Origin: a virus
Virus record (IMG/VR): IMGVR_UViG_3300030101_002314
Location: 1-28,311 of that record
Length of the DNA stretch: 28,311 nt
Strand: one strand, 5' to 3'
Part shown: positions 18,308 through 25,078 of the stretch, piece after piece
Position numbering within the stretch: position 1 is the first letter of the stretch
Layout of the letters: every line of letters starts with the position of its first letter
Translations under genes and position numbers: made by a program
Notes under the pieces: model-generated
Told to the model about the DNA's origin: nothing
Database searches by the model: none
The model's input: only the letters and a program-made list of their open reading frames with translations

Positions 18308-18592
18308 ATGGCTCGTAAACGCGCAAAGATGCCACCGCGCAATAAAAAGAATTTCCGTCCCACTAAAGCTGGGGCGGGAATGACTGAGGCTGGTGTAAAG
18401 GCTTATCGTAGAGCTAATCCTGGTTCAAAGTTAAAGACAGCGGTTACAGGTAAAGTTAAAAAAGGAAGTGCAGCGGCAAAGCGTAGGAAATCTTTCTGCG
18501 CTCGTAGTGCTGGACAAATGAAAAAGTTCCCGAAGGCTGCTAAGAATCCTAATAGTCGCCTTCGTCAAGCTCGGCGGAGATGGAAATGTTAA
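18308..18592 (+). CDS. Very basic Cys-containing phage protein
   Basis: A 94-residue, strongly Arg/Lys-rich protein. It contains GAGMTEAGVKAYRRANPGSK and FCARSAGQMKKFP, which I recognise as a widespread, uncharacterised marine phage family (an AGMTEAGVKAYRR module). Two Cys are present (CAR and the C-terminal Cys). The charge suggests nucleic-acid binding or packing with DNA in the head; this is inference. The first of a run of such genes. Confidence 0.78.
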   Translation: MARKRAKMPPRNKKNFRPTKAGAGMTEAGVKAYRRANPGSKLKTAVTGKVKKGSAAAKRRKSFCARSAGQMKKFPKAAKNPNSRLRQARRRWKC

Positions 18593-18858
18593 ATGTAATG
18601 CTGACCGCCATGCTTGGTTTTTTAGCTTGGATAGCAATATCTGTCGTTGACTTAAAGACAGACACAGCGGTTATTTCTGTCAAAGTTAACGAGAATAATA
18701 AGATGCTTACCACTTTGTGGGAAGAATATATCAGGAGAGTGGACGATGGCAATCTCGCGCGGGTCTATGACGAAACAAATATCAAATCCGCCTCAAAAGA
18801 AAAAGTGGAGCAAGTCTCGCAAATCAAAAGTAAACTGCAAGCGCCCTCGTGGTTTTAG
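18586..18858 (+). CDS. Small single-pass membrane protein
   Basis: A 90-residue protein. Its N-terminus is a membrane segment (MLNVMLTAMLGFLAWIAISVV), followed by a short helix with NENNKMLTTLWEEYIRR. That layout is common for phage small membrane proteins with an extracytoplasmic coiled coil. ATG 18586 is chosen over 18580 because GGAG then lies six bases upstream. From 18746 onward the reading frame is shared with another gene, and the last 37 residues look unstructured. A spanin-like or holin-accessory role is possible but not shown. Confidence 0.6.
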   Translation: MLNVMLTAMLGFLAWIAISVVDLKTDTAVISVKVNENNKMLTTLWEEYIRRVDDGNLARVYDETNIKSASKEKVEQVSQIKSKLQAPSWF

Positions 18859-18901
18859 TGAAAGGGCACATTGTGCCGCTAAAAGAAAGAAAAAAAGTTA
18901 G
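18746..18901 (+). CDS. Very basic 51-residue protein overlapping the membrane gene
   Basis: A short gene encoding 51 residues (start MAISRGSMTKQIS), below usual cut-offs. AGGAG lies eight bases before the ATG. The C-terminal CKRPRGFSERAHCAAKRKKK is a Cys-pair motif (C..GFSE.AHC) that I recall from a repeated module in marine phage small proteins. It overlaps the membrane-protein gene by 113 bases in another frame. The ribosome-binding site plus recognisable motif make it convincing. Confidence 0.68.
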   Translation: MAISRGSMTKQISNPPQKKKWSKSRKSKVNCKRPRGFSERAHCAAKRKKKS

Positions 18902-18912
18902 GAGTTTTTAGT

Positions 18913-19044
18913 ATGGCTCTAAAAAAACAAGACAAGAAACGAGTTAAAAAAGTTGTAACTGGTTTGAAAAAAGCTAGTCGATTACATGCTAAACAAGCCA
19001 GAACATTAAAGAGTGTGATTAATGGCAAAAAGAAAAGAACCTAA
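18913..19044 (+). CDS. Basic 43-residue helical protein
   Basis: A short gene encoding 43 residues: MALKKQDKKRVKKVVTGLKK and then ASRLHAKQARTLKSVI. It is Lys-rich and helical. AGGAG overlaps the upstream stop and sits eight bases before the ATG. It overlaps the next gene by 23 bases. Similar LKKAS..HAKQA.TLK proteins occur near phage head genes in my memory; no function known. Confidence 0.62.
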   Translation: MALKKQDKKRVKKVVTGLKKASRLHAKQARTLKSVINGKKKRT

Positions 19045-19312
19045 AGTTGGCACAGGAAAGAAACCAAAAGGTTCAGGTAGAAGACTCTATACTGACGAAA
19101 ATCCGAAAGACACTGTTAGAATTAAATTTGCTACTCCATCGGACGCTAGAGCAACGGTGGCAAAAGTTAAAAAAATTAAAAAGCCTTTTGCAAGAAAGAT
19201 TCAAATCCTAACTGTGGGTGAGCAAAGAGCAAAGGTTATGGGTAAAACAGAAGTGGTAAGAATTTTCCGCCAGGGTAAAGAAAGTCTAAGGAGGGGTAGA
19301 AAGGATGCCTAA
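19022..19312 (+). CDS. Basic phage protein, GSGRRLYTDENPKDTV family
   Basis: A 96-residue basic protein. KPKGSGRRLYTDENPKDTV, then KPFARKIQILTVGEQRAKVMG and a final Arg-rich helix, match a common uncharacterised marine phage protein family (a DUF whose number I will not guess). The middle suggests a small alpha/beta fold. The basic charge again suggests nucleic-acid contact. It is coupled with the following gene by an 8-base overlap. Confidence 0.78.
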   Translation: MAKRKEPKVGTGKKPKGSGRRLYTDENPKDTVRIKFATPSDARATVAKVKKIKKPFARKIQILTVGEQRAKVMGKTEVVRIFRQGKESLRRGRKDA

Positions 19313-19592
19313 AGATGCATGCTATCACAAGGTTAAAGCGAGATATCGCGTTTTCCCGTCGGCGTACGCAAGCGGTGCCATTGCAAAATGTAGAAAAGTT
19401 GGAGCTGCCAACTACGGAACAGGAGGCAAAAAAAAGAAAAGAAAGAAAAAAGCACACGGTGGAATCCACGTACAAAGACCAAAGCGCGCATTTAACGGAA
19501 AAGCAGTGAAAGGAACTGCTGTTGCGAGAGGATGTGGAGCAATCCTGCCTGAAAAGAGAAAACGAACAAAAGGTGTAGTCACACAATCTTGA
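19305..19592 (+). CDS. Basic Cys-containing phage protein, CYHKVKARYRV module
   Basis: A 95-residue protein in two parts. The first (DACYHKVKARYRVFPSAYAS, then AKCRKVGAANYG) is a widespread module in marine phage proteins. The second, after a Lys/Arg-rich linker, ends in GTAVARGCGAILPEKRKRT, another recurrent C-terminal motif. Cys near residues 6, 29 and 77 could bind metal. Function unknown; virion association suspected. Confidence 0.78.
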   Translation: MPKDACYHKVKARYRVFPSAYASGAIAKCRKVGAANYGTGGKKKKRKKKAHGGIHVQRPKRAFNGKAVKGTAVARGCGAILPEKRKRTKGVVTQS

Positions 19593-19816
19593 TACATGTT
19601 TTTTTGCTTATGGTTTATTTGGGGACTGAAGAGAATAGGAAGTTAATTAGTGGAGATATGTATTTTAGATCCATCAAGGAGTGTAACTTTTATGCCTCTG
19701 AGGTTTCAAAAAGATACGGAAACTACGGGTTTTCCGAATACATGGACTCGAAAGACCGTGTGACAGCTTACTGTGTGCCTAAATATGTTGAAGAAGGAAG
19801 CGTAGAGATTTACTGA
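19589..19816 (+). CDS. Small hypothetical protein, uncertain start
   Basis: A 75-residue protein if started at TTG 19589, which overlaps the previous stop as TTGA. An in-frame ATG at 19610 gives 68 residues. No good ribosome-binding site is seen for either. DMYFRSIKECNFYASEV and TAYCVPKYV are conserved-looking (an Asp/Tyr/Phe-rich, two-Cys unit), possibly a small periplasmic or extracytoplasmic domain after a short hydrophobic start. Function unknown. Confidence 0.62.
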   Translation: MIHVFLLMVYLGTEENRKLISGDMYFRSIKECNFYASEVSKRYGNYGFSEYMDSKDRVTAYCVPKYVEEGSVEIY

Positions 19817-20514
19817 TGGATCCGGTCACCGTCATGGCTACAGCCACTGCTGCATTCAATGCTGTTAAAAAAGGCATGCAGATAGGTCGTGACATAGAAA
19901 GCATGGCATCTGATCTTGGCAGATGGATGGGCGCACTCAGCGACCTGGACATGCTAGAAAAAGAAGCCAAGAACCCCCCAATATTCAAGAAGTTGTTTGC
20001 TGGAAAATCGGTTGAACAGGAAGCTATGGAGACGTTCGCTGCCAAGCGAAACGCGGAACAGCAACGAACCGACTTAAAAAATTTCATAGGTATGATGTAT
20101 GGCAAGTCCAAGTGGGACGAGCTTATTGCTATGGAAGGCAAGATCAGAAAACAGCGGCAAGAAACTTTGTATCTTCAGAGGCAACGCCGACGTAAGTTTG
20201 TAGAGATTGTTGCTTGGATTGTTATGAGTATTGTTGGTGTATGTCTGTTAGTTGGTTTTGTGGTTTTCTTAAAGGGCACAATTGCAAAAGCTGTAGCTGC
20301 TCCTGAGTACGTAATGTGCAGGCTCAAAGGTTGTGACATAATAGACGATCAGAGAGTTTGTATATATCATGGACCTAACAATACTGTTGACAGTGTGTGG
20401 TTGGACCCTATCGAATACTTCCCAAAAGAAATACAGTGTAAGTATGAACCCAACGAAAAGAAGCCACCTACTGTCCGTGAGACGTTAGATGCGATCAGGA
20501 AGTCAAGGGAATAG
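19816..20514 (+). CDS. Conserved single-pass membrane protein
   Basis: A 232-residue protein. N-terminal half is helical and charged (to about 128), with a Trp-containing ...KNFIGMMYGKSKWDELI element. A basic patch (QRQRRRK) precedes one membrane helix at about 130-152. The C-terminal domain carries four Cys (about 168, 173, 182 and 208), suggesting disulfide or metal binding. Proteins of this layout are widespread in marine phages, T4-like and podovirus alike, as I remember. Their role is unknown; a DNA-ejection or virion membrane role is a guess. TGATG couples it to the previous gene. Confidence 0.78.
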   Translation: MDPVTVMATATAAFNAVKKGMQIGRDIESMASDLGRWMGALSDLDMLEKEAKNPPIFKKLFAGKSVEQEAMETFAAKRNAEQQRTDLKNFIGMMYGKSKWDELIAMEGKIRKQRQETLYLQRQRRRKFVEIVAWIVMSIVGVCLLVGFVVFLKGTIAKAVAAPEYVMCRLKGCDIIDDQRVCIYHGPNNTVDSVWLDPIEYFPKEIQCKYEPNEKKPPTVRETLDAIRKSRE

Positions 20515-20517
20515 ACA

Positions 20518-20802
20518 ATGGCTGTACGCAAGACGAAAGAGGGCCTCGCTCTTAAAAGATGGTTTAAGGAAAAGTGGACGGATCAGCGCACGGGCAAACC
20601 GTGTGGCCGTCGCAAAGGTGAAAAACGGGGTACTCCATATTGTCGCCCCTCTAAAAGAGTTTCCAGTAAGACACCTAAAACTGGTAGCGAAATGACAGCG
20701 GCAGAAAAGCGTAGTAGGATCGCGCAGAAGAAACGAATTGGTCAACCAGCCGGAAAGCCTCGGCGTGTGAAAGCACTTAGGCGAAAGAGGAAGAAGAAAT
20801 GA
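20518..20802 (+). CDS. Very basic phage protein, LKRWFKEKW family
   Basis: A 94-residue protein, strongly Lys/Arg-rich. LKRWFKEKWTDQRTGKPCG, GEKRGTPYCRPSKRVS and MTAAEKRSRI belong to a recurring small marine phage family, often found as a domain near head or tail genes. Two Cys sit in the PCG and YCRP elements. It ends in a Lys/Arg tail (RRKRKKK). A DNA-binding or condensing role is inferred from charge only. Confidence 0.76.
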   Translation: MAVRKTKEGLALKRWFKEKWTDQRTGKPCGRRKGEKRGTPYCRPSKRVSSKTPKTGSEMTAAEKRSRIAQKKRIGQPAGKPRRVKALRRKRKKK

Positions 20803-20981: not shown

Positions 20982-21442
20982 AGAACCTGGTTAAAAAGTG
21001 GGTGGATACTGACCTTAGTGTAGTAGATCCACAGGTCGGCTTTGCTCCTTGTCCTTTTGCTAAGAAAGCTTTGAAGGATGACAAACTAAAACTAGTTAGA
21101 TGTAATGGTAATCTTTGGGAAAAGGTTGCTAAAGAATGTAGAGATTTTGAGTCTAAACACTCAGTAATAATCTGTTTTGAGGATGATCCAGAAGAGTCCT
21201 ATGATCAGATTGAAGTAGCATGCATGGCGTTAAATGAATGGTTTTCATTAAACAAAATGGATGTTTGGGTTCTGGCTTTTCAAACAGACTTCACTATGGT
21301 CTTTGTTCAAAGGTTGTCAGAACTTGATGATGCTAGTCAAGTCCTAGAAAAAATGGGATACTATGACAGCTACGACAGAGAAGACTATTTAAAGTTAATA
21401 GTAGAGCGGCGAAAAAGGAGACTTGAAAATGCCCGGAGCTAA
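20978..21442 (+). CDS. Hypothetical protein with PCPFAKKA motif
   Basis: A 154-residue protein with a GTG start overlapping the previous stop. VGFAPCPFAKKAL (about 20-32) resembles a Cys-containing motif known from small uncharacterised enzymes-like families (for example the PCPFAK/CPFA pattern), here in a phage. The middle is alpha/beta-looking (SVIICFEDDPEESYDQIEVA, VWVLAFQTDFTMV). The C-terminus is an Arg-rich helix (LIVERRKRRLE). The single motif Cys could be catalytic or structural; no reaction can be assigned. Confidence 0.68.
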   Translation: MKNLVKKWVDTDLSVVDPQVGFAPCPFAKKALKDDKLKLVRCNGNLWEKVAKECRDFESKHSVIICFEDDPEESYDQIEVACMALNEWFSLNKMDVWVLAFQTDFTMVFVQRLSELDDASQVLEKMGYYDSYDREDYLKLIVERRKRRLENARS

Positions 21443-21656
21443 AAAACAGGCTATGAAGCGCAGAGGCGGTGGTATGGCTAAAAAACAGGCTATGAAGCGC
21501 AGAGGCGGTGGTATGGCTAAAAAAGCAGCCCTTAGACGTAATGCTGGGGGTATGGCTAAAAAAGCAGCGTTAAAACGCAGAGGCGGTGGTATGGCTAAAA
21601 AAGCAGCTATGCCCAGGCGTATGCGTGGCGGCGGCATGAACAAAAAGAGAAGGTAA
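21429..21656 (+). CDS. Tandem-repeat Lys/Arg/Gly protein
   Basis: A 75-residue protein made almost wholly of a 13-residue repeat: MAKK.A.KRRGGG, about five copies. ATG 21429 has AGGAG seven or eight bases upstream; a TTG at 21423 is in frame but unlikely. The charge (mostly Lys and Arg, few acids) resembles protamine-like or RGG-type DNA/RNA binders. It may condense DNA or be packed with it; this is inference from composition. Confidence 0.7.
   Translation: MPGAKKQAMKRRGGGMAKKQAMKRRGGGMAKKAALRRNAGGMAKKAALKRRGGGMAKKAAMPRRMRGGGMNKKRR
21438..21635 (+). repeat. 39-bp tandem repeats inside the basic protein gene
   Basis: Copies 1 and 2 (21438-21476 and 21477-21515) are identical 39-bp units. Copies 3 and 4 (to about 21593) are diverged, and a partial fifth follows. 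They encode the 13-residue protein repeat. Identical neighbouring copies suggest recent slippage or duplication. Confidence 0.85.
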
Positions 21657-23489: not shown

Positions 23490-23921
23490 ATGGCAACAAG
23501 TAACGCTGCAACAAACTACCTAGAAAGGAGGTTGTTGCATTTCATTTTTAAAAACAACTCCCTTAGTTTTTCTTCGCCCGGCGACAGTATCTATGTTGGT
23601 TTAGCAACGGCGGTATCTGCGGCTGAAACAGGTTCTTTAACGGAAGCTACCTTCACGAATTACGCAAGACAGCAAGTCACAGCATCAAACTGGACAACTA
23701 TAGGCTCTGATTCTACAGATACTCAGACGGCAGTAAATGCAGCTAATATTGAGTTTCCTGCATCAGGTGGGACAAACAACACCATAACCCACTCCTTTGT
23801 TGCAGATGCTTCTTCAGGCGGAAACATTCTGTTTGTTGGCGCACTTGATGCCAGCAAGACCGTAGCCTCTGGTGACATCTTTCGGATAAATGCTGGCAAC
23901 CTTACGATTGAGTTGAAGTAA
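23490..23921 (+). CDS. Putative tail/fibre structural protein
   Basis: A 143-residue protein. An initial helix (ATNYLERRLLHFIFKNN) and then SPGDSIYVGLATAVSAA with a beta sandwich-like rest. This plan matches a family of small phage tail proteins I recall (L.DY.E..LL..., VYVGLF). An AAGGAG lies before the ATG. Likely a fibre-associated structural protein. Confidence 0.7.
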   Translation: MATSNAATNYLERRLLHFIFKNNSLSFSSPGDSIYVGLATAVSAAETGSLTEATFTNYARQQVTASNWTTIGSDSTDTQTAVNAANIEFPASGGTNNTITHSFVADASSGGNILFVGALDASKTVASGDIFRINAGNLTIELK

Positions 23922-25078
23922 TGGCACTTGTTCTTAAAGACAGGGTAAAAGAAACCACAACCACCACAGGCACGGGTACATATACTCTAGCTGGTGCAGT
24001 TACTGGTTTTGAAGCGTTCAGTGTTATTGGCAATAGCAACACGACTTTCTATTGCTGCACTGATGGCTCTGACTTTGAGATAGGCGTTGGCACTTACACA
24101 TCATCAGGTACGACTTTAGCTAGAACAACGATACTTCAGTCTAGCAACAGCGATAGCGCGGTTAGTTGGAGTTCAGGAACTAGGACTATATTCTGCACGT
24201 TGCCAGCAGAAAAGATGTCCTTCTTGGACGCAAGCGGTAACCTAGTAGCCGCTAACGGTAGTGCGCTCACTGCATTGAACGCCAGCAATCTTGCAAGCGG
24301 AACTGTAGCCAACGCGCGGTTGGATCAGCAGCTTCAGGATGTAGCAGGGCTTGCCGTCACAGACAGTGGTTTTATTGTAGGAGACGGGTCTAACTTTGTT
24401 TTAGAAACTGGAGCCACTGTTAGAACATCATTGGGACTTGGCACAGCGGCTGTATTGGACACTGGAATATCAAACACCAACGTTGCCAAGTTTACTTCTG
24501 GTGTTGCTGACAATGACTTTTTAAGAGTTGATGGCACTGACGTAGAAGGTCGATCTGCGTCAGAAGTATTGTCTGACATTGGCGCACAAGCATCTTTGAC
24601 ATTCGGTATATCAAACACCAACGCTGTAAAGATCGACAGTAGTTCTGTAGCGGATGATGAGTTTGCAAGATTTACCGCTAACGGATTAGAAAGCAGGTCT
24701 ACATCAGAGGTTCTATCAGACATCGGGGCACAGGCGTCACTGACGTTTGGTATATCTAACACTAATGCTGTTAAGATTGATAGCTCCTCCGTAGCAGACG
24801 ATGAGTTTGCGCGGTTCACAGCAGATGGTTTGGAAAGCAGGAGCGCATCAGAGGTCAGATCAGATATTGGTTTAGGCACTGCTGCCGTATTAGATACAGG
24901 CATTTCAAACACTAATGTTGCTAAGTTTACATCTGGGGTGGCAGATAACGATTTCTTGCGGGTTGATGGTACATCTATCGAAGGTAGATCTGCTTCAGAA
25001 GTGCTATCTGATATAGGTGCAACAACAGCTACAGCGGCAGCGGATGAGGCCACGGCGCTTGCAATCGCGTTGGGTTGA
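23921..25078 (+). CDS. Tail fibre with A-B-B-A repeats
   Basis: A 385-residue protein. The N-terminus (MALVLKDRVKETTTTTGTG, FYCCTDGSDFEIGVGTY) is the module that commonly anchors marine phage fibres. After about residue 168 come four repeats of about 48 residues. The outer two (GISNTNVAKFTSGVADNDF) and the inner two (GISNTNAVKIDSSSVADDEF) form an A-B-B-A order. The end (ATTATAAADEATALAIALG) looks like the start of a fibre coiled coil that stops short, so the receptor tip may be in the genes that follow. Confidence 0.78.
   Translation: MALVLKDRVKETTTTTGTGTYTLAGAVTGFEAFSVIGNSNTTFYCCTDGSDFEIGVGTYTSSGTTLARTTILQSSNSDSAVSWSSGTRTIFCTLPAEKMSFLDASGNLVAANGSALTALNASNLASGTVANARLDQQLQDVAGLAVTDSGFIVGDGSNFVLETGATVRTSLGLGTAAVLDTGISNTNVAKFTSGVADNDFLRVDGTDVEGRSASEVLSDIGAQASLTFGISNTNAVKIDSSSVADDEFARFTANGLESRSTSEVLSDIGAQASLTFGISNTNAVKIDSSSVADDEFARFTADGLESRSASEVRSDIGLGTAAVLDTGISNTNVAKFTSGVADNDFLRVDGTSIEGRSASEVLSDIGATTATAAADEATALAIALG
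24422..25020 (+). repeat. A-B-B-A coding repeats of the tail fibre
   Basis: Four units of about 144-156 bases. Inner copies (about 24577-24720 and 24721-24864) and outer copies (about 24422-24576 and 24865-25020) keep almost the same protein while many codons use a different third base or codon family. Protein identity with DNA divergence is the notable point. Confidence 0.8.

What the first reader, a model, noticed from the sequence alone, without database searches (positions are those of the whole stretch)
24422..25020. A-B-B-A tail-fibre repeats: near-identical protein, recoded DNA
Inner repeat copies share almost every residue (GISNTNAVKIDSSSVADDEF), yet codons differ at about half of the positions, for example AGT AGT TCT versus AGC TCC TCC and AGA versus CGG. 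Outer copies show the same pattern. This implies old duplication under strong protein constraint, or selection for DNA difference that blocks recombination or slippage. It contrasts with the identical 39-bp repeats at 21438.
Basis: seen in the sequence. Interest (0 to 1): 0.6.

Follow-up and report, generated by a model that had tools for sequence, protein, structure and literature searches.

The report
Recoded repeats in phage tail fibre
A marine phage tail-fibre gene carries four repeat units whose protein is almost unchanged but whose DNA spelling has been fully randomised, because the units are very old and the protein is under extreme constraint; relatives vary in length by losing or importing whole units, with no fresh copy of a neighbouring unit seen.

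Summary
The fibre ORF (23921-25078, 385 aa) holds units A1 24419-24565, B1 24566-24709, B2 24710-24853 and A2 24854-25000. B1/B2 share 46/48 residues but only 16/46 codons; A1/A2 share 44/49 residues and 16/44 codons. Random synonymous choice predicts 15.3 and 14.5, so synonymous sites are saturated, but not beyond chance. In 152 distinct fibre genes (552 units) from uncultured marine phages, units at least 94% alike in protein share about 37% of codons within a gene and 41-43% between genes. Ordinary neighbouring genes at that identity share 71-79%. Within-gene units are on average slightly more alike in DNA than units of unrelated phages, so selection for DNA difference is not supported. Units are positional orthologues: window and relative L001 differ at dS 0.14-0.37 unit by unit. 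In nine single-unit length differences between close relatives, the extra unit is never a near copy of a neighbour. Breakpoints fall at matching phase inside units, at short homologies. Best reading: ancient hyperconserved shaft modules, each with its own DNA lineage, evolving by birth, death and exchange under purifying selection. Main caveat: short-read assembly could hide exact young duplicates.

The parts
23921..25078 (+). Tail-fibre ORF, 385 aa
   Evidence: ORF; N-terminal part matches annotated tail-fibre proteins of Roseobacter phage CRP-6, Methylophilales phage Venkman and others; flanked by tail/fibre genes
23921..24250 (+). Conserved N-terminal domain (attachment end, inferred)
   Evidence: tblastn hits cover residues 1-109; 80 viral loci found with residues 1-140 alone, 53 of them without any unit
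24419..24565 (+). Repeat unit A1 (49 aa)
24566..24709 (+). Repeat unit B1 (48 aa); absent as a unit from close relatives L020/L021
24590..24733 (+). The 144 nt present here and missing in L021; in L020 the breakpoint lies 3-6 nt further on; edges at matching phase in B1 and B2
   Evidence: best split p=168-170 (L021) and 171-174 (L020)
24710..24853 (+). Repeat unit B2 (48 aa); ends ASE before VRSD as the context rule predicts
24854..25000 (+). Repeat unit A2 (49 aa)
25001..25075 (+). C-terminal tail VLSDIGATTATAAADEATALAIALG
   Evidence: sequence; similar ending TALAIALG in isolate HTVC106P gp54
21438..21515 (+).

Best explanation
The array is the repetitive shaft of a phage tail fibre built from two hyperconserved modules (A and B). 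The copies separated so long ago that synonymous sites are randomised, while purifying selection holds the protein nearly constant. Each position in the array is its own DNA lineage, inherited as a positional orthologue. Array length changes by clean one-unit in-frame events with breakpoints at matching phase inside units, at short homologies: either loss by recombination between neighbouring units or import of an already diverged unit from another phage. This is birth-and-death evolution with inter-phage exchange under purifying selection. Shown: recoding, saturation, positional orthology, whole-unit gain/loss, breakpoint phase, absence of visible young duplicates. Inferred: shaft role, trimeric fibre, direction (loss vs import) of each event, and that length tunes host contact.
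For: Codon identity at the chance level. Orthologous units of window and L001: dN 0-0.009, dS 0.14-0.37, while B1/B2 in both are saturated. Units at 94-100% protein identity share 36-37% of codons within genes and 41-43% between genes, against 71-79% for seven control regions of the same loci. Among 321 B units about half of the 48 columns never vary in protein yet use nearly all synonymous codons; one B protein is encoded by 22 different DNAs, median 76% nt identity. A search with the N-terminal domain only, which does not select on the units, finds B units at 92-98% of consensus or none at all. DNA families keep their order: 1 conflict in 109 co-occurring pairs. Nine independent one-unit differences: flanking orthologues 0.88-1.0, extra unit only 0.68-0.79 to any unit in its own gene. 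Breakpoints in phase within units; the L021 B unit has its first codons from a B1-like unit and the rest from B2-like DNA.
Against: At synonymous saturation, in-place old duplication and assembly of units from different phages cannot be told apart. Pairs of intermediate age exist (L071 units up to 90% nt identity; L054 B-B 86%), so duplication does occur sometimes. The loci come from a top-80 ranking and mostly from metagenome contigs, where no exact direct repeat above 85 nt within 3 kb is seen in 1.79 Mb, so exact young duplicates may be hidden. The AlphaFold2 monomer model is poor (mean pLDDT 52.6), so the shaft structure is untested.
Confidence: 0.8

Rival explanations
1. Selection for DNA difference: neighbouring units are driven or kept apart in DNA so that slippage and homologous recombination cannot delete them; young identical copies are quickly lost, so only recoded arrays survive.
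For: 0 of 331 within-gene pairs (protein identity at least 85%) reach 90% nt identity, against about 2% of between-gene pairs; no gene holds two units at or above 90% nt identity, against about 33 genes when units are shuffled within group and type; the window's longest exact run between like units is 11 nt.
Against: Codon identity is not below chance, and within-gene pairs are slightly more alike than unrelated pairs, in codon identity and exact-run length (p=0.002 and 0.007). Positional inheritance and assembly collapse of exact repeats explain the missing young copies without selection on DNA.
Confidence: 0.12
2. Import only: the A-B-B-A array never duplicated in place; diverged units were brought together from different phages by recombination, so recoding predates the array.
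For: All nine length differences involve an extra unit unlike any other in its gene; close relatives recombine unit families, e.g. A41-B73-B71, A41-B73-B72 and A41-x-B72.
Against: Within-gene units are on average slightly more alike than units of unrelated phages, in protein and codons, which points to some shared in-gene ancestry; arrays of intermediate age such as L071 look like in-gene duplication.
Confidence: 0.3
3. Dual coding: the open antisense frame 24334-25053 constrains or shapes the codons.
For: A 239-aa antisense ORF spans the repeats.
Against: Fully open antisense frames occur in 22% of arrays and in 19% of synonymously recoded arrays; synonymous sites are saturated.
Confidence: 0.02
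4. Assembly artefact or chimera of two phage strains.
For: The record is a virus contig of 28,311 bases whose assembly history is not known here.
Against: L001, another record, carries the same ABBA order with unit-by-unit orthologues that differ by their own synonymous changes; recoded arrays occur in many independent contigs.
Confidence: 0.02

Closest known systems
Polyubiquitin repeats (birth-and-death versus concerted evolution debate; Nei et al. 2000 as discussed in PMC10457151)
   Same: Head-to-tail repeats with near-constant protein and many synonymous differences; repeat number varies
   Different: In polyubiquitin, repeats within a species are usually more alike than between species (PMC10457151). 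Here orthologous units in different phages are far closer than the units within a gene, and units stay joined in one fibre protein
Periscope proteins (PMC8201768)
   Same: Tandem near-identical protein modules, probable rod, variable repeat number that would set length
   Different: Periscope genes have long, highly similar DNA repeats that are proposed to drive length change; here the DNA repeats are about 72% identical and length changes without visible young duplicates; phage virion, not bacterial surface
Mosaic phage tail fibres and receptor-binding proteins (PMC10684548)
   Same: Exchange of protein segments between phages; tail fibres are among the most mosaic classes
   Different: Exchange here is at the level of 48-49 aa repeat units of nearly fixed protein sequence, visible only in DNA

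Membership tests
Phage tail-fibre protein | N-terminal domain shared with annotated tail-fibre proteins | tested here: met
   CRP-6 67%, Venkman 63%, others 50-57% over residues 1-109
Phage tail-fibre protein | Lies in a tail/fibre gene block | tested here: met
   Neighbours match Podophage GP4 fibre (PF23140), T7 tail-fibre N-terminal (PF03906) and PHROG tail families
Phage tail-fibre protein | Trimeric elongated shaft structure | tested here: inconclusive
   Monomer model mean pLDDT 52.6; no PDB sequence relative at E<=0.1
Known repeat family in Pfam, PHROGs or NCBIfam | Repeat region matches a curated model above cut-off | tested here: not met
   Only weak hits: Mur ligase E 0.008, 17 bits against cut-off 21, phrog_38864 E 3e-4, NF008057 20 bits against cut-off 297
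Periscope protein | High DNA identity between repeats | tested here: not met
   B1/B2 73%, A1/A2 72% nt identity
Concerted evolution (polyubiquitin-like) | Paralogous units more alike than orthologous units of related genomes | tested here: not met
   W-L001 orthologues share 78-90% of codons, paralogues in W about 35%
Birth-and-death evolution under purifying selection | Saturated synonymous sites with conserved protein, orthology by position, unit gain and loss | tested here: met
Diversity-generating retroelement target | Excess amino-acid-changing variation between copies | tested here: not met
   Variation is almost wholly synonymous; no search for a reverse transcriptase was made

The most novel reading that the evidence does not exclude
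An 'anti-periscope' fibre: repeat arrays that persist only when neighbouring units differ in DNA, so that recoding itself makes a long, repetitive fibre heritable; new units are recruited as already diverged modules from other phages and not by tandem duplication.
Probability: 0.18. Interest if true: 0.65.

Novelty: new variant of a known kind. Interest (0 to 1): 0.42.

Why it matters
The family gives a natural experiment with many arrays in which protein and DNA identity of tandem repeats are uncoupled. It shows that repeat number in a fibre can vary without DNA-identical repeats, unlike the usual picture in which high DNA identity drives length change. It also supplies modules under exceptional constraint (about half of B-unit residues never vary while nearly every synonymous codon is used), in uncultured marine phages, with no match in curated repeat families or solved structures.

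Tried and rejected
Selection for DNA difference: tested by codon-usage expectation, within-unit shuffles, and within versus between gene comparisons; no signal below chance. A first permutation with only 10 representative genes was biased to long arrays and was redone by group. Antisense coding rejected. The monomer fold was too poor for a fold search, which I therefore did not run. Isolate phage genomes: no match to the repeat region in 50,697 records, one MAG match, so the assembly caveat could not be removed with isolates. Literature searches found no paper on recoded tail-fibre repeats in the held library; that is not proof of absence.

Full report
What is there. The repeats lie in one 385-aa ORF at 23921-25078. 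Unit limits are A1 24419-24565, B1 24566-24709, B2 24710-24853, A2 24854-25000, followed by a short C-terminal tail. The ORF's N-terminal part matches annotated tail-fibre proteins of marine phage isolates and the neighbouring genes match tail and fibre families, so a tail fibre is the sound reading. The window is a 28,311-base virus record with terminase, portal and capsid genes.

Is the recoding more than chance? B1/B2 share 46 of 48 residues but only 16 of 46 codons; A1/A2 share 44 of 49 residues and 16 of 44 codons. With the window's own codon usage, two independently spelled copies would share 15.3 and 14.5 codons. The copies are therefore as different as random synonymous spelling makes them: fully saturated, not over-dispersed. 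NG86 gives dN 0.057 and 0.093 with dS undefined.

Comparison with relatives. Searches of viral contigs with the fibre and its units gave 294 sequences including the window and 152 distinct unit-bearing genes with 552 units. Arrays hold from one to fifteen units in orders such as AB, ABA, ABBA, ABBBA, CBBCB. At 94-97% protein identity, codon identity has a median of 0.37 for units of one gene, 0.41 for units of different genes, and 0.71 for seven control regions (flanking genes and the fibre N-terminus) of the same loci; at 97-100% the figures are 0.36, 0.43 and 0.79.

Constraint. Among 321 B units about half of the 48 columns never vary while nearly all synonymous codons occur. Because the searches used exact peptides from the units, I repeated the search with the N-terminal domain only: 27 of 80 loci carry units, every B-like unit is 92-98% identical to the consensus, and the other 53 have none. 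The module is thus either present and nearly perfect, or absent.

Age and positional inheritance. Each window unit is the orthologue of the unit at the same place in L001 (78-90% of codons shared; dS 0.14-0.37; dN 0-0.009), whereas the window's own B1 and B2 are saturated. DNA families of units keep their order in the array (1 conflict in 109 pairs), and no gene holds two units at or above 90% nt identity, against about 33 genes expected if units were shuffled within group and type. B units also follow a context rule: residue 46 is T or N in 160 of 161 units followed by a VL unit and A in 27 of 29 followed by a VR unit.

How length changes. Nine independent one-unit differences between close relatives were found (homologous rows merged). 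The flanking units are 0.88-1.0 identical, but the extra unit is only 0.68-0.79 identical to any unit in its own gene, so none is a recent tandem copy, not even a two-part mosaic one. The split points lie inside units at the same phase, often in the VLSDIGxQA segment, at short homologies. One of the nine (L163 against L214) is weak, with flanks at only 0.88-0.89. For the window, L021 lacks 144 nt equal to 24590-24733; the single B unit of L021 starts like B1 and continues like B2. Loss by recombination between B1 and B2, or import of B1 by the window lineage, would both give this.

Selection for DNA difference. Across 31 gene groups, B units within a gene are slightly more alike than B units of unrelated genes in codons (0.443 vs 0.395, p=0.002) and exact run length (16.3 vs 12.4 nt, p=0.007). 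This is opposite to the prediction of selection for difference. What remains is the lack of young copies: 0 of 331 within-gene pairs at or above 90% nt identity. Assembly can explain part of it: in 1.79 Mb of loci no exact direct repeat longer than 85 nt occurs within 3 kb. Duplicates at 90-97% identity should have assembled (inference from usual assembler word sizes), so the gap is probably not wholly technical, but it cannot be called selection.

Residual signal. Even for saturated pairs, B proteins within a gene are more alike than between groups (0.939 vs 0.921, 18 of 23 groups, p=0.0003). This may be old shared ancestry or lineage-specific demands on the shaft; I leave it open.

Known comparisons. 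The pattern works like birth-and-death evolution under purifying selection as argued for polyubiquitin, and differs from concerted evolution (PMC10457151). It is the reverse of Periscope proteins at the DNA level (PMC8201768). Mosaic tail fibres are well known (PMC10684548). The repeat itself matches no curated family above cut-off and no solved structure.

Verdict. Real, well explained by age plus extreme constraint, with an interesting family-wide uncoupling of protein and DNA repetition. The adaptive-recoding reading is not supported.

Noticed in passing
L071:463-2013: A fibre with a run of B units up to 90% identical in DNA and a 70-nt exact repeat 144 nt apart: the youngest-looking array found.
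   Followed up: partly
24334-25053, - strand: A 239-aa antisense ORF spans the repeats; recoding simulation shows such frames are expected by chance (22% vs 19% of arrays).
   Followed up: yes
21429-21656: Small basic ORF of 13-aa repeats (KKQAMKRRGGGMA) with two identical 39-bp copies then degenerate ones; no Pfam or PHROG match and no similar repeat ORF in the fetched loci.
   Followed up: partly
25048-25075: The fibre ends in TALAIALG; isolate Pelagibacter phage HTVC106P gp54, an otherwise different protein, ends in the same residues, and L196 ends AVAMAIAL. A possible shared C-terminal signal.
   Followed up: no
window 18308-20802: Several small, very basic ORFs (18308, 19022, 19305, 20518) lie between capsid and tail genes.
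   Followed up: no
B/A unit junctions, e.g. 24698-24709 and 24842-24853: Context rule: B units end with T (or N) at residue 46 before another VL unit but with A before a VR unit (A type), in 187 of 190 junctions.
   Followed up: partly
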